Shown here piece after piece: positions 23,125 through 63,100 of a DNA stretch of 64,000 nucleotides. The notes under the pieces are model-generated. The model saw nothing but the letters and a program-made list of their open reading frames with translations. It was not told where the DNA came from and searched no databases. Origin of the DNA: Hydrogenophaga sp. SL48 (GTDB lineage Bacteria > Pseudomonadota > Gammaproteobacteria > Burkholderiales > Burkholderiaceae_C); the NCBI RefSeq assembly GCF_021729865.1, contig NZ_CP063400.1, positions 5,257,001 to 5,321,000 on the forward strand, given 5' to 3'. Position 1 is the first letter of the stretch, and each line of letters starts with the position of its first letter. Made by a program: the position numbers and the translations under genes.

Positions 23125-26100
23125 ATGTCTGATGCGCACCCGCTCCTGAACCCCTCTTCTTCGCCCGAGCCTGGGGAGGCCGCGCAGGCCCCCGCAGAAA
23201 CCGGGCTGATCCGCATCCGGGGCGCGCGCCAGCACAACCTGAAAAACATCGACCTCGACATCCGCACTGGTGAGCTCACGGTGGTGACCGGGCCCAGCGG
23301 CTCGGGCAAGTCCAGCCTGGTGTTTGACACGCTGTTCGCCGAGGGCCAGCGCCGCTACGTGGAGACCTTCAGCGCCTACGCGCGCCAGTTCCTCGACCGC
23401 ATGGACAAGCCGGCGGTGGATCGGGTGGACGGCGTGCCGCCCGCCATCGCCATCGACCAGACCAACCCGGTGCGCAGCTCGCGCTCGACGGTGGGCACGA
23501 TGACCGAGCTGAACGACCACCTGAAGCTGCTGTTCGCGCGCGGCGCCGACCTGTTCGACCGCGAGACCGCGCTGCCGGTGCGGCACGATTCGCCGGAGTC
23601 GATCTACGCCGAGTTGCAGAAGCGTTGTGTGGGATTCACCGCCGGGCCGCCCCAAGGTGAATCAGCCCCCTCGGGGGGCAGCGAACCACGCGCAGCGGGG
23701 AGCGTGGGGGCAAATGGTTCCGATCCCCGGCTGGTCGTGACCTTCCCGGTCGAGCTGCCCGCCAGCACCACACCCGAAGAAATCGAACAGTGGCTCTCTG
23801 CCAGCGGTTACACGCGGGTGCAGGCCGAACGGATCGTCCAGCGCGCTGCGCCGGCGCCCGATGCCAAAGCGGCGAAAGCCGCCAAAACCACCAAGGCCAA
23901 GGGTGCTGCGCCCAGCGAATCGGTGAAGGTGCTCGACGTGGTGGCCGACCGCTTCCGCATCGGCACCGCCGAGCAGGTGCGTGTGATGGAGGCCATCGAA
24001 GCCGGCCTCAAGCGCGGCAGCGGCAAGCTGATGGTGTATGTGCTGGGCGAGGAGGGAGCGAGCCGCCCCGACGCCGGGCCGCCCCAAGGCGGGGCAGCCC
24101 CCTCGGGGGGCAGCGAACCACGCGCAGCGGGGAGCGTGGGGGCCTCCATCGTCTGGCGGTTCTCGACCGGCCTGCATTGCCCCGAAAGCGACATCCGCTA
24201 CACCGACCCGACGCCGTCGATGTTCTCGTTCAACTCGGCCGTGGGCGCCTGCGAGGCCTGCCGCGGTTTCGGCCGCGTGATCGGGGTGGACTACGGGCTC
24301 GTGATCCCGAACGACAAGCTCACCTTGCGCAACGGCGCGATCAAGATCTTCCAGACCCCCGCCTGGAAAGAAGCGCAGGACGACCTGATGCGCCACGCTG
24401 AAAGCGCGGGCATCCCGCGCGACACGCCCTGGAACAAACTCACGCCCGAGCAGCAGCACTGGGTCAAGGCCGGTTCGCCGAACTGGAACGGCAAGTGGAA
24501 CCAGCACTGGTTCGGCATCGCGCGCTTCTTCGAGTACCTGGAGAGCAAGGCCTACAAGATGCACATCCGCGTGCTCTTGTCCAAGTACCGCAGCTACACC
24601 GAATGCCCGAGCTGCGGCGGCGCGCGCCTGAAGACCGACAGCCTGCTCTGGCGCATCGGCACCAAGGCCCAGGCCGACGCGGTGCTGCCGCCCGAAAGAC
24701 GCTACCTGCCGAAGGGCGTGAAATGGTCGCGTGCGCAGCTGGAGGCTTTGCCCGGCCTGTGTCTGCACGACCTGATGCTGCTGCCGCTGGACAAGTTGCG
24801 GGTGTTTTTTGCGGCGCTGGACAAGACGCTGGTCCCGGCGGGCTCGGACCTCGCGGGGGCCGGCCAGGCGCAGGCGGTGCGCCTGCTGTTCGAAGAAATC
24901 AACACCCGCATCCGCTACCTGTGTGAGGTCGGCATCGGTTACCTCACGCTGGACCGCCAGAGCCGCACGCTCAGCGGCGGCGAGGTGCAGCGCATCAACC
25001 TCACCACGGCGCTCGGCACCTCGCTGGTGAACACGCTCTTCGTGCTCGACGAACCCAGCATCGGCCTGCACCCGCGCGACATGGCGCGCATCAACGACGC
25101 CATGCTGCGCCTGCGCGACGCGGGCAACACGCTGGTGGTGGTGGAGCACGACCCGGCCGTGATGCTGGCCGCCGACCGCCTGATCGACATGGGCCCAGGC
25201 CCGGGCGAGCGCGGCGGACAGATCGTGTTCGACGGCACGCCCGAAGCGATCCGCAGCGCCGACACGCTGACCGGCGCCTACCTCGGCGCGCGCAAGACCG
25301 TGGGCATGGGCTTCAAGCGCATGGTGACCGACAGCACGCCCAGGCTCATCCTCGAAGGCGCGCGCGAACACAACCTGCAGAACGTGAGTGTCGAGTTCCC
25401 ACTGCAGCGGCTGGTGGTGATCACCGGCGTGTCCGGCTCGGGCAAGTCGAGCCTGATCCAGGACGTGCTCGCGCCCGCGCTGCTGCGCCACTTCGGCAAG
25501 TCCACCGACGCGCCGGGCGCACACGACCGCCTGCTCGGCGCCGACTTCCTGAGCGAGGTCGTTTTCGTCGACCAGTCGCCCATCGGCAAGACCGCGCGCT
25601 CCAACCCGGTGAGCTATGTGGGCGCCTGGGACGCCGTGCGCGCCCTGTTTGCCGACGCGCCGCTGTCGCGTCAGCGCAGCTACACCGCGAGCAAGTTCAG
25701 CTTCAACAGCGGCGACGGGCGTTGCCCCACCTGTGGCGGCTCCGGCTTCGAGCACGTGGAGATGCAGTTCCTGAGCGACGTGTATTTGCGCTGCCCGGAT
25801 TGCGACGGCAAACGCTACCGGCCCGAGATTCTGGAAGTGAAGATTGAACGCGGTGCCCGCTGGTTCAACGTGGCCGACGTGCTGGACCTCACCGTGAGCG
25901 AGGCCGCCGCGCTGTTTGCGGCCGATCGCGAAGTCATCCGCGCGCTGCAGCCCATCGTGGACGTGGGGCTGGAGTACGTGAAACTGGGTCAGCCGGTGCC
26001 CACGCTCTCGGGCGGCGAGGCGCAGCGCCTGAAGCTCGCGGGCTTTCTCGCCGAGGCCGCCAAGACGGCGAGCGCCAGCCGCCAGCCGATCTCGCGCAAG

Positions 26101-29100
26101 GGCACGCTGTTCCTGTTCGACGAACCCACCACCGGCCTGCACTTCGACGACATCGCCAAGCTCATGCGCTCGCTGCGCAAGTTGCTGGACGCCGGGCATT
26201 CACTGATCGTGATCGAGCACAACCTCGATGTGATCCGCGCCGCCGACTGGCTGATCGACCTCGGTCCCGAGGGGGGTGCGGGCGGTGGCCTGGTGGTGGC
26301 CGAGGGCGCGCCCGAAGAGGTGCGGCAACACGCCAGCAGCCACACCGCCAAGGCCCTGCGCGACTACGCCGAGTCCATGGGCGAGGTGCACGCGGTGCAC
26401 GAAGGCCGGCTGGTCGACTACCTGAAGCAGCCGCAGCGCCAGCGGGCTTCGGCCGCGCGCGCCGCGGGCCACAGCAACGCCATCCGCATCGTCAACGCCA
26501 AGGAGCACAACCTCAAGAACCTGAGCGTGGACATCCCGCGCGGCCAGTTCAACGTGATCTCCGGCGTGAGCGGTTCGGGCAAGTCCACGCTGGCCTTCGA
26601 CATCCTGTTCAACGAAGGCCAGCGGCGCTACCTCGAATCGCTCAACGCCTACGCGCGCAGCATCGTGCAGCCGGCCGGCCGGCCCGAGGTGGATGCGGTC
26701 TACGGCATCCCGCCCACGGTGGCGATCGAGCAGCGGCTCAGCCGCGGCGGGCGCAAGAGCACGGTGGGCACCACCACCGAGGTCTGGCACTTCCTGCGCC
26801 TGCTCTACGTGAAGCTGGGAACACAGCATTGCGTGCACGACGGCGCTGCGGTCATGCCGCAGAGCCCCGAGAGCATCGCCGCCGCCATCCTCACGCGCTA
26901 CGCCGGCCAACACATCGGCCTGCTGGCGCCGCTGGTGGTCAACCGCAAAGGCGTCTACACCGAGCTGGCCGACTGGGCGCGCCCTCGCGGCCACACGCAC
27001 CTGCGCGTGGACGGCGAGTTCCTGCCCACCAGCGGTTTCCCGCGCATCGACCGCTTCAAGGAGCACACCATCGAACTGCCGGTGGCCGACGGCGTGGTGG
27101 ACCCGGCCAACGAGGCCTGGTTGCGCAGCCAGCTCAGCAAGGCGCTGGAGATCGGCAAAGGGCAGGTGCATGTGCTGCACCAGATGCAGGGCCTGGCGCA
27201 GGCCATGGTGGACGGCACGTCCACCGTGGGCCTGGGCAAACTGGAGGTCTTCTCCACCAACCGCGCCTGCCCGGTCTGCGCAACCAGCTACCCCGAGCTG
27301 GACCCGCGCCTGTTTTCGTACAACAGCAAACACGGCTGGTGCCCCGACTGCGTGGGCACGGGCCTGGCGCTCTCGCGCGAGCAGCGCAAGGCGCTGGACG
27401 ATTCGGTGCGCGACGACAACGAACGTGGCCGCGAACAGAGTTTCGCCGAGCCCGAGGTGGAAGACCTGGCCGATCGACCCTGCCCGGCTTGCGAAGGCAC
27501 CCGTCTCAATGCGCAGGCCCGTGCGGTGAAGTTCGGCGGTGTGGGGATCACCGACGTGGCCCGTCTGTCGGTGAATGAAGTCCGCTCTTGGGTGCAGGGC
27601 TTGCTGAAAGTGGCCGCGCTGACGAGCCGCGAAGCCGACATCGCGCGCGACCTGCTGCCCGAGATCGAAAGCCGCCTCGCCTTTCTCGAAGAGGTGGGCC
27701 TGAACTACCTCACGCTCGACCGCGGCGCGCCCACGCTCAGCGGTGGCGAGGCGCAGCGCATCCGCCTGGCCGCGCAGCTCGGCAGCAACCTGCAGGGCGT
27801 GTGTTACGTGCTCGACGAACCCACCATCGGCCTGCACGCCCGCGACAACGCCATCCTGCTCAACGCCCTGCACAAGCTCGGCGAGATGGGCAACACCCTG
27901 GTGGTGGTGGAACACGACGAAGACACCATCCGCCGCGCCGACCACATCATCGACATCGGTCCCAGCGCGGGCAAACGCGGTGGTCGTGTGGTGGCGCAGG
28001 GAACGGTCGCCGACCTGTCTGCGAATGAAGAGTCCGTCACCGGGCGCTACCTGCTGCACGCGATGAAACACCCGCTGCAGCCGCGGCGAGCCGTGGATGC
28101 GGCGGCTCCTGCACTCGAAGTCCGCGGCGCCAAGCTGCACAACCTGCAGAACCTCAACGTCGCCGTCCCCCTGCAACGCCTGGTCGTCATCACCGGCGTC
28201 AGCGGCTCCGGCAAATCCACCATCGCGCGCGACGTGCTGCTCACCAACGCGGCCGCCGCGGTGTCCGCCCGCAGCACCTTCGCCGGTCGTCAGGCCTGGG
28301 ACAACGACGGCGTGCGCCCGGCCTGGGTGGGCTGCGACAAGCTGCTGGGCTCCGAGGTGGTGGACCGCGTGCTCGAAGTCGACCAGACCCCCATCGGCAA
28401 AACGCCGCGCAGCTGCCCGGCCACCTACATCGGTTTCTGGGACACGGTGCGCAAGCTGTTTGCCGACACGCTGGAAGCCAAGGCGCGCGGCTACGGCCCG
28501 GGCCGCTTCAGCTTCAACACCGGCGAAGGCCGCTGCCCGGGCTGCGAAGGGCAGGGCATGCGCACCATCGAGATGAGCTTCCTGCCCGACGTGAAAGTGC
28601 CCTGCGAGGTCTGCCACGGCGCGCGCTTCAACCCCGAGACCCTGGCCGTGAGCTGGAAGGGCAAGAGCATCGGCGACGTGCTGCAGATGGAGGTGGACGA
28701 GGCGGTGGGGTTCTTCGCCAGCATGCCCAACATCAGCCACCCGCTGCAGCTGCTGAAAGACGTGGGCCTGGGGTACCTCACGCTCGGCCAGCCCAGCCCC
28801 ACGCTCAGCGGCGGCGAGGCGCAGCGCATCAAGCTCGTCACCGAACTCAGCAAGGTGCGCGACGACGTCACGCGCCGCGGCCAGAAGGCGCCGCACACGC
28901 TGTATGTGCTCGACGAGCCGACCGTGGGCCTGCACATGGCCGACGTGGAAAAGCTCATCCGCGTGCTGCACCGCCTGGTGGATGGTGGTCACAGCGTGAT
29001 CGTGATCGAGCACGATCTGGACGTGATGGCCGAAGCCGACTGGATCATCGACCTCGGCCCCGAAGGCGGCTCGGGTGGCGGACGCATCGTGGCGGCGACC

Positions 29101-29193
29101 ACGCCGGAAGCCGTGGTGCGGCTGGGCACGCACACCGGCAAGGTGTTGGGGCCCGTGCTGGCCCGTGGCGCTCCAGTGGCGCTGGTGGCCTGA
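23125..29193 (+). CDS. uvrA: Double-length UvrA (two tandem UvrA units) with repeat-derived insertions
   Basis: A 2022-residue excinuclease ABC subunit A-like ATPase. Ordinary UvrA is about 940-1000 residues with two ABC modules. This protein has four Walker A motifs, G(P/V)SGSGKS(S/T), at residues about 56, 768, 1147 and 1691. It also has four LSGGE(V/A)QR signatures and matching LDEP Walker B segments, i.e. two UvrA units fused head to tail. CxxC zinc-module pairs are visible ([35 protein letters not shown]). Residues 173-196 and 317-340 are nearly identical 24-residue insertions encoded by copies of the GC-rich intergenic repeat. The product should bind damaged DNA and is probably a second UvrA (UvrA2-like) paralog rather than the housekeeping one. 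Confidence 0.9.
23641..23712 (+). repeat. Intergenic repeat copy inserted in frame in uvrA (copy 1)
   Basis: Seventy-two bases encode [20 protein letters not shown] plus SVGA (uvrA residues 173-196). The DNA (GGGCCGCCCCAAGG, CCCCCTCGGGGGGCAGCGA, GCGGGGAGCGTGGGGG) matches the tandem repeat next to glgP at 60454-60621 and a second copy 432 bp downstream. A length that is a multiple of three keeps the frame open. Confidence 0.85.
24073..24144 (+). repeat. Intergenic repeat copy inserted in frame in uvrA (copy 2)
   Basis: The second 72-base in-frame copy encodes [20 protein letters not shown] plus SVGA (uvrA residues 317-340). It has the same reading frame and boundaries as copy 1 and differs mainly at codons 6-8. 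The two copies bracket a lysine/alanine-rich segment of the first UvrA unit. Confidence 0.85.
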
Positions 29194-35233: not shown

Positions 35234-35241
35234 CCCCCGAT

Positions 35242-35319
35242 CCGAGGAGCGTTGCAGCGCACCCCTGACCACCGGTCAGCGTGGGGCGTGAGGCTCGGAA
35301 ATCCATGCAACGACGCTCA
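35242..35319 (+). ncRNA. S-adenosylhomocysteine (SAH) riboswitch
   Basis: The ahcY leader contains the SAH riboswitch pattern. CCGAGGAGCGTTGCA at 35242 pairs in two ways: CCGAG with CTCGG (35294-35298) forms P1, and GAGCGTTGCA with the downstream TGCAACGACGCTC (35306-35318) forms the pseudoknot helix. Between them is a hairpin, CACCCCTGACC...GGTCAGCGTGGGG. Known SAH riboswitches occur in Proteobacteria before SAH hydrolase genes and raise expression when SAH accumulates. A T-rich run (35340-35347) follows. Confidence 0.9.
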
Positions 35320-35392
35320 TCCACTGACGTGTGATGGGCTTTTTTTTGCCTGTTCATGCCAGTGGTTCTTGCCAACCTCATCTGGAGTTTCC

Positions 35393-60453: not shown

Positions 60454-60621
60454 TCAGCCGGGCCAGCCGCCGGGCCGCCCCAAGGCAGGCCCAGCCCCCT
60501 CGGGGGGCAGCGACCCGCGTAGCGGCGGAGCGTGGGGTCAGCCGGGCCAGCCGCCGGGCCGCCCCAAGGCAGGCCCAGCCCCCTCGGGGGGCAGCGACCC
60601 GCGTAGCGGCGGAGCGTGGGG
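60454..60621. repeat. Perfect 84-bp tandem duplication of the GC-rich repeat
   Basis: Two identical 84-bp units (60454-60537 and 60538-60621) contain GGGCCGCCCCAAGG, CCCCCTCGGGGGGCAGCGA and CGTAGCGGCGGAGCGTGGGG. A degenerate third partial unit precedes them (about 60434-60453). The array ends one base before the glgP stop codon. The units match the in-frame insertions in uvrA. Confidence 0.92.
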
Positions 60622-60622
60622 G

Positions 60623-63100
60623 TCACCCAAACAGCGGCTTCACGTTCCAGATGTCGTCGGCGTATTCGCGGATGGTGCGGTCGGAGGAGAACATGCCCAT
60701 GCCGGCCACGTTCATGATCGCGTGGTGGGCCCACTCGCTGGGGCGGCGGTACAGCTCGTCCACCTTCAGCTGGGTCGCGACGTAGTCGGCGTAGTCGGCC
60801 AGCAGCAGGTAGTAGTCCGATTCGAGCAGCGTGCGCGTGATGTCGTGGAAGCGGTTGGGCTCTTCGGGGCTGAAGGCGCCTTCGGCGATGCGGTCGATCG
60901 CGGTCTTGAGGTCGTAGTTGTGGTCGTAATAGCGGCGCGGGTTGTAGCCGCTGGCGCGCAGGGCCGCGACCTGCTCAGTGCGGTTGCCGAAGATGAAGAT
61001 GTGCTCCAGCCCCACGTTTTGGGCGATCTCGATGTTGGCGCCGTCCCAGGTGCCGATGGTCAGTGCGCCGTTGAGCGCGAACTTCATGTTGCCGGTGCCC
61101 GAGGCCTCGGTGCCGGCGGTGGAGATCTGCTCGGACAGGTCGGCCGCGGGAATGATGACCTCGGCCAGCGACACGCGGTAGTTCGGCAGGAACACCACCT
61201 TGAGCTTGTCGCCGATGCGCTTGTCGTGGTTGACGGTGCGTGCCACGTCGTTGATCAGCTTGATCACCAGCTTGGCCATGTAGTAGGCCGAGGCCGCCTT
61301 GCCGCCGAAGATCACGGTGCGCGGCACCCAGTTGGCGTTGGGGCGCGCCAGGATCTGGTGGTAGCGCGTCACCACGTGCAAGACGTTGAGCAGCTGGCGC
61401 TTGTACTCGTGCATGCGCTTGATCTGCACGTCGAACAGGCTCTCTGGGTCGACCACGATGCCGGTCTCTTTGGCGATGCGTTCGGCCAGGCGCTGTTTGT
61501 TTTGTGCCTTGGCCAGTCGGAACGCGCTCTGGAACTCGGTGTCGTCGGCCAGCGCGCGCAGTTGCGCCAGCTCGCCGAGGTGGCGGCGCCAGGTGGTGCC
61601 GATGCGCGCGTCGATCAGCGCCGAGAGCGGCCGGTTGGCCTGCGAGAGCCAGCGGCGCGGCGTGATGCCGTTGGTCTTGTTGTTGAAGCGCTCGGGCCAC
61701 AGGCGAGCGAAGTCGGCAAAGATGGTCTCCACCATCAGCTGGCTGTGCAGGGCCGACACGCCGTTGACCTTGTGGCTGGCCAGCACCGAGAGGTAGGCCA
61801 TGCGCACGCGGCGCTGGCCGTGTTCGTCGATCAGGGAGATGCGGCGCAGCAGCTCGTTTTCACCCGGGAAGCGGTCGTGCACCTCGGCGAGGAAACGCGC
61901 GTTCAGGTCGTAGATGATGCGCAGGTGGCGCGGCAGCAGGCGGCCCATCAGCTCCACCGGCCAGGTCTCCAGCGCCTCGCTCATCAGCGTGTGGTTGGTG
62001 TAGCTGAAGATGCGCTGGCACAGGTCCCAGGCGGCGTCCCACTCCACGTGGTGCTCGTCCACCAGGATGCGCATCAGCTCGGGCACGGCCAGCGCCGGGT
62101 GGGTGTCGTTGAGGTGGATGGCGACCTTGTCGGCGAGCTGGTCGAAGCTGCCGTGGTGCTTCAGGTAGCGGCGCACGATGTCCTGCAGCGAGGCGCTGAC
62201 GAAGAAGTACTCCTGGCGCAGGCGCAGCTCCTTGCCGTGTTCGGTGCTGTCGTCGGGGTAGAGCACGCGCGAGACGTTTTCCGACTGGTTCTTGGCTTCG
62301 ACCGCGCGCATGTAGTCGCCCTTGTTGAAGGCGTCGAGGTTGATGCCGCTGGAGGCGCGCGCGGTCCACAGGCGCAATGTGGCGACGCTGCTGAGCTCGT
62401 GGCCGGGCACGCCGCTGTCGTAGGCGGTGGCGATCACATCGTCGGTGTCGACCCAGCGCACGTGCTCGCCTTCCTGGACCAGCCGGCCGCCGAACTGCAC
62501 GGGGTAGCTGAACTCGGGGCGCATGAATTCCCAGGGGTTGCCGTTGACCAGCCAGTAGTCCGGCTCTTCGACCTGGCGCCCGTCGACGATGCGCTGCGCG
62601 AACATGCCGAAGTCGTAGCGGATGCCGTAGCCCATGCCGGGCAGGCCTACCGTGGCCATGGAGTCGAGGAAACAGGCGGCCAGGCGACCCAGGCCCCCGT
62701 TGCCCAGGCCGGCGTCGGTTTCCAGGTCGATCAACGCGTCGAAGTCGGCGCCGAGCTGGGTGCAGGCGGTCTTCGCGTCGTCGTAGATGCCGACCGCGAG
62801 CAGGGCGTTGGTGAGCGCGCGCCCGGTGAGGAACTCCAGCGAGAGGTAGTACACGCGCTTGGCATCGTTGTCCTGTGTCACGGCCAGGGTCTCGCGCCAG
62901 CGGTGCATGGTGCGGTCGCGCACCGCGTGGAACAGGGCAAACAGCCAGTCGCGGCGCGTGGCCGAGCGCAGGTCTTTGCCCACCGCGTAGACCAGCCGGT
63001 TGGCGATGGACTTGCGCAGCGCATCCACCGTGTTGTCCAGATGGTCGTACTCGAACGGTGCGGTGGCGGTGCCGACGGTGGGGGTCAAGGGGGTGTTCAT
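60623..63100 (-). CDS. glgP: Glycogen phosphorylase
   Basis: An 825-residue PLP-dependent alpha-glucan phosphorylase releasing glucose-1-phosphate from glycogen or maltodextrin. The PLP-lysine region is EASGTGNMKFALNGALTIGT. Other family segments are GNGGLGRLAACFLDSMATVG and KRMHEYKRQLLN. The start ATG at 63100 has a modest GGGGGT region upstream. It follows glgA by 36 bp, so the two genes form a glycogen operon. The 84-bp tandem repeat lies directly after its stop. Confidence 0.96.
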   Translation of the reverse strand: MNTPLTPTVGTATAPFEYDHLDNTVDALRKSIANRLVYAVGKDLRSATRRDWLFALFHAVRDRTMHRWRETLAVTQDNDAKRVYYLSLEFLTGRALTNALLAVGIYDDAKTACTQLGADFDALIDLETDAGLGNGGLGRLAACFLDSMATVGLPGMGYGIRYDFGMFAQRIVDGRQVEEPDYWLVNGNPWEFMRPEFSYPVQFGGRLVQEGEHVRWVDTDDVIATAYDSGVPGHELSSVATLRLWTARASSGINLDAFNKGDYMRAVEAKNQSENVSRVLYPDDSTEHGKELRLRQEYFFVSASLQDIVRRYLKHHGSFDQLADKVAIHLNDTHPALAVPELMRILVDEHHVEWDAAWDLCQRIFSYTNHTLMSEALETWPVELMGRLLPRHLRIIYDLNARFLAEVHDRFPGENELLRRISLIDEHGQRRVRMAYLSVLASHKVNGVSALHSQLMVETIFADFARLWPERFNNKTNGITPRRWLSQANRPLSALIDARIGTTWRRHLGELAQLRALADDTEFQSAFRLAKAQNKQRLAERIAKETGIVVDPESLFDVQIKRMHEYKRQLLNVLHVVTRYHQILARPNANWVPRTVIFGGKAASAYYMAKLVIKLINDVARTVNHDKRIGDKLKVVFLPNYRVSLAEVIIPAADLSEQISTAGTEASGTGNMKFALNGALTIGTWDGANIEIAQNVGLEHIFIFGNRTEQVAALRASGYNPRRYYDHNYDLKTAIDRIAEGAFSPEEPNRFHDITRTLLESDYYLLLADYADYVATQLKVDELYRRPSEWAHHAIMNVAGMGMFSSDRTIREYADDIWNVKPLFG

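What the first reader, a model, noticed from the sequence alone, without database searches (positions are those of the whole stretch)
23641..24144. GC-rich intergenic repeat inserted twice, in frame, in uvrA
Two nearly identical 72-bp segments encode 24-residue blocks (AGPPQG...[16 protein letters not shown]) in the first unit of the double UvrA. Their DNA matches the tandem repeat beside glgP and relates to other intergenic copies. A mobile or expanding intergenic repeat has thus entered an essential-type repair gene at multiples of three bases, in the same reading frame both times. This looks like an element that can supply tolerated linker peptides.
Basis: seen in the sequence. Interest (0 to 1): 0.72.

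Follow-up and report, generated by a model that had tools for sequence, protein, structure and literature searches.

The report
Structured repeat inserted in-frame in uvrA
A short, hairpin-forming DNA repeat that is scattered through this bacterial genome has landed twice inside a DNA-repair gene without breaking its reading frame, adding nearly the same linker peptide each time, as related repeats do in other bacteria and other genes.

Summary
Confirmed. The double-UvrA gene (window 23125-29193, 2022 aa) holds two ~71-nt copies of a repeat found at about 76 places in this Hydrogenophaga-like genome. The closest of 80 fetched orthologues lack both blocks; H. aromaticivorans has block 1 but not block 2, so block 2 looks younger. 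Other genera carry the repeat in UvrA at the same or other sites, in both orientations and several frames. Thirteen copies lie in frame inside 11 genes of this genome, and others in recG, topB, rep, valS and metX of relatives. It works like Rickettsia palindromic elements and like REPs already reported inside uvrA genes. It may be the beta-proteobacterial repeat element (BRE), whose sequence I could not check. How it spreads is unknown: no fixed target duplication and no linked transposase were found.

The parts
23125..29193 (+). uvrA-type gene, two UvrA units fused (2022 aa), uninterrupted reading frame
23633..23711 (+). repeat copy 1 with its own stem: 5' arm 23633-23640 (GATTCACC), loop 23641-23655, 3' arm 23656-23663 (GGTGAATC), constant hairpin 23665-23679, third hairpin about 23686-23700, tail 23701-23711
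24065..24143 (+). repeat copy 2: 5' arm 24065-24072, 3' arm 24088-24095 (7 of 8 positions pair), constant hairpin 24097-24111, tail 24133-24143
23641..23712 (+). 24-codon peptide block 1, [24 protein letters not shown], loop between helix 157-172 and strand 202-212 of the model
24073..24144 (+). 24-codon peptide block 2, [24 protein letters not shown], loop between strands 301-307 and 342-347 of the model
60469..60537 (+). first copy of the tandem array after glgP (intergenic form)
60553..60622 (+). second copy of the tandem array after glgP (intergenic form)
60623..63100 (-). glycogen phosphorylase gene whose stop codon abuts the array

Best explanation
The two blocks are copies of a dispersed, hairpin-forming repeat of Comamonadaceae (unit mostly 81-87 nt, three hairpins) that was copied into the gene in two separate events. 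Shown: dispersal, lineage-specific presence, in-frame insertion, covarying stem, phase bias, position in predicted loops. Inferred: new copies arise in every position and phase, and selection removes those that shift or stop the frame or encode a harmful peptide. The survivors in genes are then multiples of three, in loops, and read in the single low-charge, Gly/Ala/Ser/Pro/Thr-rich phase of each strand (APSGGSEP forward, SLPPEGA reverse). Between genes the copies often stand directly after a stop codon. The agent that copies the repeat is not identified; strand exchange or template switching at hairpins, or an HUH-type transposase acting in trans, are the candidates.
For: Own-genome count: 83 sites against 0 for the reversed control. 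Thirteen in-frame internal copies in 11 genes, with family models matching on both sides of the copy (for uvrA). Empty sites: L055, L074, L060 and L057 lack both blocks; P0001 lacks block 2 only. Ten copies in 9 of 81 UvrA genes, at several different sites (the 80 orthologues are the best 80 of 582 found; the L105 copy is weak). Phase: + 20 of 23 in phase 2 and - 20 of 21 in phase 0, although 36 of these 44 had all three phases of their strand open; collapsed to independent sites 13 of 17 and 15 of 16, binomial p 3e-4 and 8e-7 against 1/3, the favoured phase being chosen on the same data. In the consensus, the used frames have 1 R+K and 70-79% G/A/S/P/T, the others 3-6 R+K and 43-65%. Control: genes beside non-internal copies show no such phase (- strand phases 0/1/2 = 8/13/13). 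Stem 1: 6 of 6 pairs with changes on both sides; over the 12 pairs tested 98 such cells against 26.0 shuffled, 0 of 500. Both blocks fall in loops with low pLDDT inside an otherwise confident region.
Against: No duplication of fixed length or position: among 95 copies without a neighbouring copy the best fixed-offset 4-mer match occurs in 4; there is a small unexplained excess of flanking matches (mean 4.39 against 4.11, 0 of 150 shuffles; 7 nt or more: 4 against 2.1, reached by 25 of 150, first seen). Junctions in UvrA replace rather than simply split the flank, so clean transposition is not shown. The one Y1_Tnp gene found (308632) has no copy beside it. In UvrA itself other phases also occur (L060 +0, L094 +1, L117 -2, and ten matches of other-phase motifs in 9 of 120 homologues). 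Same-site copies in several genera (recG 5, metX 3 and others) could mean old insertions kept, not frequent new ones. In-gene status outside this genome rests on codon scores, only partly checked by family models.
Confidence: 0.8

Rival explanations
1. The blocks are an ancient UvrA sub-domain that happens to be GC-rich and repeat-like, lost in many relatives.
For: Block 1 is shared by several Hydrogenophaga and by Xenophilus at the same site; site 254 carries a block in this genome, L058, L062, L188 and a number of listed homologues.
Against: The same DNA lies in intergenic spaces and in unrelated genes and at other UvrA sites in other frames and on the other strand. The closest fetched orthologues lack it. 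The orthologues from Ralstonia, Cupriavidus, Pandoraea, Caballeronia and Burkholderia (L119, L122, L126, L128-L131) showed no insert of 12 or more residues matching the repeat.
Confidence: 0.03
2. One old insertion per site, inherited vertically and lost often, explains the same-site copies; there is little present-day movement.
For: Each same-site group shares orientation and phase, and mostly subtype (recG, metX, valS, topB, fadB-like, yhiN-like).
Against: Repeat identity in same-site pairs (0.84-0.99) is in most pairs above that of the coding flanks (0.67-0.93), though part of this comes from choosing loci by an exact core. Block 2 is absent from H. aromaticivorans, which has block 1. Copies at UvrA site 1407 are in opposite orientations in L055 and L060.
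Confidence: 0.35
3. The repeat is a structured RNA or protein-binding element selected for function wherever it lies, and the in-gene copies are regulatory.
For: Covarying stem 1; of 63 non-internal copies 40 have a gene converging on their 3' end, and in 28 of these 40 its stop codon lies within -3 to 12 nt; in Bordetella an 80-nt transcript comes from a region with a BRE copy (PMC3110155, passages).
Against: In stem 1, G-U and A-C cells are equally common in the pair-type table (8 each, counted by eye), which gives no sign of one functional RNA strand. In-gene copies occur in both orientations. Several members of tandem arrays lack the stem-1 match. No Rfam match.
Confidence: 0.2
4. The matching stem arms arise without selection, by template-switch correction of imperfect palindromes during replication (mechanism recalled, not from a call).
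For: The stem sequence differs from copy to copy while loop and tail stay nearly fixed; covariation shows no strand preference.
Against: No direct test here; later units of two arrays keep unmatched arms.
Confidence: 0.45

Closest known systems
Beta-proteobacterial repeat element (BRE), Hot et al. 2011, PMC3110155 (section 14 read, other passages seen)
   Same: Beta-proteobacteria including several Comamonadaceae; unit 75-91 bp against mostly 81-87 here; tandem arrays of variable number; mostly intergenic, some 'located entirely within coding sequences'.
   Different: Sequences are only in its figure and supplement, which were not available, so identity is untested. GC averages 69.0% (63.7-78.9) in Bordetella against 79.0% (63.9-87.7) in 122 copies here. 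No reading-phase or stem covariation analysis was seen in the parts I read.
Rickettsia palindromic elements (RPE), as reviewed in PMC2229807 (passages)
   Same: Dispersed repeat found between genes and in frame inside conserved protein genes, tolerated by at least one tested product.
   Different: 105-146 bp long stem-loop with terminal inverted repeats, in Rickettsia; here three short hairpins in a GC-rich clade, with a copy-specific stem.
Intragenic GTAG/CGTC REPs, 'GTAG- and CGTC-tagged palindromic DNA repeats in prokaryotes' 2013, PMC3733652 (section 15 read, passages of other sections)
   Same: Repeats inside DNA-repair genes, including double insertions in uvrA of Opitutus terrae and Thioalkalivibrio; intergenic copies close to stop codons; subfamilies with alternative complementary stem residues.
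   Different: Small tagged hairpins (20-40 bp by its abstract); our repeat is longer and has no such tag at an end by eye. A search of the paper for six genera (Delftia, Acidovorax, Comamonas, Polaromonas, Variovorax, Burkholderia) found none.
PARCEL palindromic coding repeats, PMC2996958 (abstract)
   Same: 25-residue repeats encoded by DNA with dyad symmetry and spread within genomes.
   Different: Amphipathic domains in ORFs of unknown function, many membrane-targeted, not linkers in conserved enzymes.

Membership tests
BRE (beta-proteobacterial repeat element) | Unit length 75-91 bp, often in tandem | tested here: met
   Array periods 81, 83, 84, 85, 87 (one pair 115)
BRE (beta-proteobacterial repeat element) | Beta-proteobacterial distribution, Comamonadaceae included | tested here: met
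   Exact 16-mer in 219 of 299 family genomes and 4 of 117 other-family genomes of the order; 7 plasmid records, in Acidovorax, Rhodoferax, Variovorax, Azoarcus, Burkholderia, Paraburkholderia. Outside the order only the plasmid and phage collections were searched.
BRE (beta-proteobacterial repeat element) | GC content near 69% | tested here: inconclusive
   Mean 79.0%; 44 of 122 copies lie at or below the published maximum
BRE (beta-proteobacterial repeat element) | Sequence match to the Bordetella BRE | not testable with these tools
   Sequence only in figure and supplement; a motif search of the library did not list this paper
Rickettsia palindromic element | In-frame copies inside conserved protein genes | tested here: met
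   13 copies in 11 genes of this genome
Rickettsia palindromic element | Long palindrome of 105-146 bp with terminal inverted repeats | tested here: not met
   Three short hairpins in about 80 nt
GTAG/CGTC REP with RAYT | 20-40 bp hairpin with GTAG or CGTC tag at one end | tested here: not met
   About 80-nt unit; no such tag at an end of alignment A2, by eye
GTAG/CGTC REP with RAYT | Cognate tyrosine transposase flanked by the repeat | tested here: not met
   One Y1_Tnp gene, no copy near 308632
MITE | Target-site duplication | tested here: inconclusive
   No duplication at a fixed offset in 95 copies; a small excess of flanking matches over shuffles remains
MITE | Terminal inverted repeats matching a resident transposon | not tested
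   No transposon ends were compared

The most novel reading that the evidence does not exclude
Part of this repeat family has become a gene-dwelling mobile linker: a subtype (tail GAACCACGCGCAGCGGGGAGCG) whose length and coding on both strands make it harmless in exactly one phase per strand, spreads from gene to gene across a bacterial family, and recurs in DNA-repair and recombination genes (uvrA, recG at two sites, topB, rep), as unrelated REPs do elsewhere.
Probability: 0.2. Interest if true: 0.75.

Novelty: new variant of a known kind. Interest (0 to 1): 0.52.

Why it matters
Bacteria of a mostly free-living family (recalled) are shown to hold repeats inside conserved enzymes, so the question raised by the Rickettsia elements (are such inserts merely tolerated, or useful?) can be tested in culture. 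The near-exclusive use of one phase per strand, when most of the six frames are open, gives a countable footprint of selection on inserted peptides. The recurrence in uvrA, recG, topB and rep, in a repeat with no evident relation to those in which repair genes were earlier noted as targets, makes that older suggestion testable by a whole-family count.

Tried and rejected
Fixed target-site duplications: not found; a small general excess of flanking matches stays unexplained, and one copy (own 4747228) has a 10-nt flanking direct repeat. N-terminal fusion as the main reason why ATG often abuts the copy: rejected, because the flanking ATGA looks mostly like the stop codon of the neighbour and downstream genes show no phase preference. 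A linked RAYT: not found. Rfam families: no match to the repeat in the window at gathering scores (the one match is an SAH riboswitch elsewhere) and none in one array locus at E up to 5. Phages: no match. Subtype G against in-gene location: strong in this genome (8 of 12 against 3 of 45, p 4e-5; 8 of 14 against 3 of 43, p 2e-4 after I moved two copies by eye; a third subtype, 2 of 18 internal, left out) but weak elsewhere (loose in-frame calls, my count from the listing: 23 of 28 against 15 of 28; strict calls: 17 of 28 against 14 of 28), so I do not build on it. Rows dropped before counts: 7 of 83 sites with low score; 3 of 140 copies without a recognisable head; own-genome loci L182, L197, L216, L234 from the family sample; own_1119885, I_L227, I_L231, I_L235, G_L190 before collapsing to sites, with five sites then added by hand; the degenerate L105 copy left out of that phase count; array members left out of alignment A2 and. 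Alignment A3 of 60 further copies was made but its pairs were not counted.

Full report
What is there. The window is 5257001-5321000 of a complete 5.43-Mb genome. Named UvrA relatives nearest to it are Hydrogenophaga (also L124 and MAGs). The double-UvrA gene 23125-29193 has no internal stop and contains two copies of the repeat, at 23641-23711 and 24073-24143. The distance of 432 nt keeps both in the same phase. The genome also has a normal UvrA, so the interrupted gene is a second, larger UvrA and not the only one.

The repeat family. A 20-nt core with up to three mismatches hits 83 places, 44 on one strand and 39 on the other, against none for the reversed pattern. After scoring, 76 remain. 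Copies stand alone or in tandem with spacings of 81-87 nt, one pair at 115. The exact 16-mer core occurs in 219 of 299 genomes of the family, own genome included (reversed control: one hit seen, in G195), and in 4 of 117 genomes of other families of the order.

Structure. While reading the UvrA insertions I saw that the variable spacer after CCCCAAG is the reverse complement of the bases just upstream of GCCGGGCCG in the same copy. Over 137 of 140 copies the mean longest match is 6.53 bp, 90 of them with 6 bp or more; with partners shuffled the mean is 3.98, the highest of 500 shuffles being 4.26. On an alignment of 62 copies from this genome, all six stem-1 pairs show changes on both sides; over the 12 pairs of stems 1 and 2 there are 98 such cells against 26.0 in shuffles, 0 of 500 reaching it; sliding the partner by one to three columns destroys the signal. 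A second hairpin (GCCCCC-TCG-GGGGGC) is nearly constant. A third, CC.C..G.GG, also varies in a matched way by eye, which I did not count. In the pair-type table stem 1 has 8 G-U and 8 A-C cells, so there is no sign that one RNA strand is the selected one. Template-switch correction of palindromes would explain this without function; selection on structure is the alternative.

Insertion, not an old domain. Eighty orthologues were fetched, the best 80 of 582 found. All 80 have a long open frame (1751-2268 codons). Insertions scoring far above their shuffles against the repeat occur in L088, L058, L062, L094, L117, L055 and L060 besides this genome; L105 is weaker. The sites, orientations and frames differ. 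L055 and L074, 96% and 95% identical in aligned residues, have neither block. Among the 120 listed best matches to residues 150-345, 28 carry a block in the two common frames by a motif search, which misses the variant in P0006; H. aromaticivorans (P0001) has block 1 and lacks block 2, and Ottowia oryzae (P0099) has two blocks in tandem. The 120 were chosen by similarity, so 28 of 120 is not a rate.

Other genes. A codon-score scan called 18 of 76 copies in frame. Thirteen of these, in 11 genes, hold up against family models: uvrA twice, xdhA twice, a DUF2126 gene, two acyl-CoA dehydrogenases, an AidB-like gene, a biotin carboxylase, glnE, a MadB-type ATPase, cobQ and a salicylyl-CoA hydroxylase (uvrA 61). 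The other five, four of them array members, were not checked. The cobQ copy fell short of the stricter score and is kept on the family model. In 56 sampled copies of other genomes, the loose scan called 38 in frame (my count) and the strict one 31. Genes checked by NCBIfam include recG (two sites), topB, rep, uvrA, valS, metX, moeA, glpK, creD, cobQ and biotin carboxylase. Several sites recur in different genera: recG in 5 genomes, metX in 3, valS, topB, a fadB-like gene and a yhiN-like gene in 2 each, cobQ and biotin carboxylase in this genome and one other. Of 19 independent sites in other genomes by my count, 5 are in repair or recombination genes (recG twice, topB, rep, uvrA); I have no proper background rate, so this is a lead.

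Reading phase. Taking the phase of CCCCCTCGGGGGGCAG, 20 of 23 forward in-gene copies use phase 2 (PSGGS) and 20 of 21 reverse ones use phase 0 (LPPEG), although 36 of these 44 had all three phases of their strand open. Collapsed to independent sites, with the deviating UvrA sites added, it is 13 of 17 and 15 of 16; the favoured phases were chosen on the same data, so the p-values are somewhat flattering. Genes next to non-internal copies show no such preference: reverse phases 8, 13, 13 and forward phases 1, 4, 3 for phases 0, 1, 2 (one of the reverse phase-0 cases is the cobQ copy, which family models place inside the gene). In the consensus, the two preferred phases are the ones with a single basic residue and the most G/A/S/P/T. 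The simplest reading is that copies in the other phases are removed because their Arg-rich peptides do harm. In UvrA the bias is looser.

Place in the protein. The model of residues 1-525 is good for 150-350 outside its loops (pLDDT mostly 85-94) and poor in much of the rest (mean 61.5). Both blocks are low-confidence loops between secondary-structure elements: block 1 between helix 157-172 and strand 202-212, block 2 between strands 301-307 and 342-347. By recalled domain knowledge this is the UvrB-interaction domain. In the alignment of the block-free relative L055 to 2r6f, both insertion points lie at or beside gaps.

Junctions. No duplication at a fixed offset was found. After leaving out copies with a neighbouring copy, 95 remain with a small excess of flanking matches (mean 4.39 against 4.11; 0 of 150 shuffles), not significant for matches of 7 nt or more (4 against 2.1; 25 of 150). 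I cannot say whether this is local composition or a faint trace of how copies arise.

Intergenic copies. In 40 of 63 non-internal copies a gene converges on the 3' end of the copy, and in 28 of these 40 its stop codon is within -3 to 12 nt, as described for REPs (PMC3733652, section 15 read).

Literature. In-frame repeats in genes are known: RPE (PMC2229807, passages), intragenic REPs including uvrA of Opitutus and Thioalkalivibrio (PMC3733652), and BRE, some of which lie within coding sequences (PMC3110155, section 14). Searches for such repeats by topic, name, motif or peptide listed no description of this repeat's phase bias or covarying stem; only open-licence papers were searched and the BRE supplement was not available.

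Verdict. The case is a strong example of a known kind, with a copy-specific covarying stem and a marked phase bias as features I did not see described.

Noticed in passing
UvrA orthologues among L056-L134, linkers at alignment sites 489, 826, 1017, 1381, 1567: The same gene carries many other lineage-specific in-frame inserts with recurring peptides (SPHPNLPPEGEG, LGSDPN, TVRAEPVEAGSTRSTSQ, SSYGGGTPKSSP, HSERSEE), which look like further dispersed repeat families: double UvrA may be a general sink for repeats.
   Followed up: no
window 35238-35325 (+): SAH riboswitch above the Rfam gathering score.
   Followed up: no
L174 (own genome, copy at 4747228): A copy flanked by a 10-nt direct repeat TTCATGTCAG on both sides, the best candidate for a true target duplication or a recent event.
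   Followed up: no
L238 (own genome 308632-308913): The only Y1_Tnp (RAYT-like) gene found in the genome; no copy of this repeat beside it.
   Followed up: partly
L015 (own 5123968) and L174 (own 4748317): Copies a few codons after the probable start of trpG-like and NiFe-hydrogenase genes in + phase 2, possible N-terminal extensions.
   Followed up: partly
P0099 (Ottowia oryzae UvrA, residues about 250-305): Two tandem in-frame blocks at one site: the tandem array has grown inside a coding gene.
   Followed up: no
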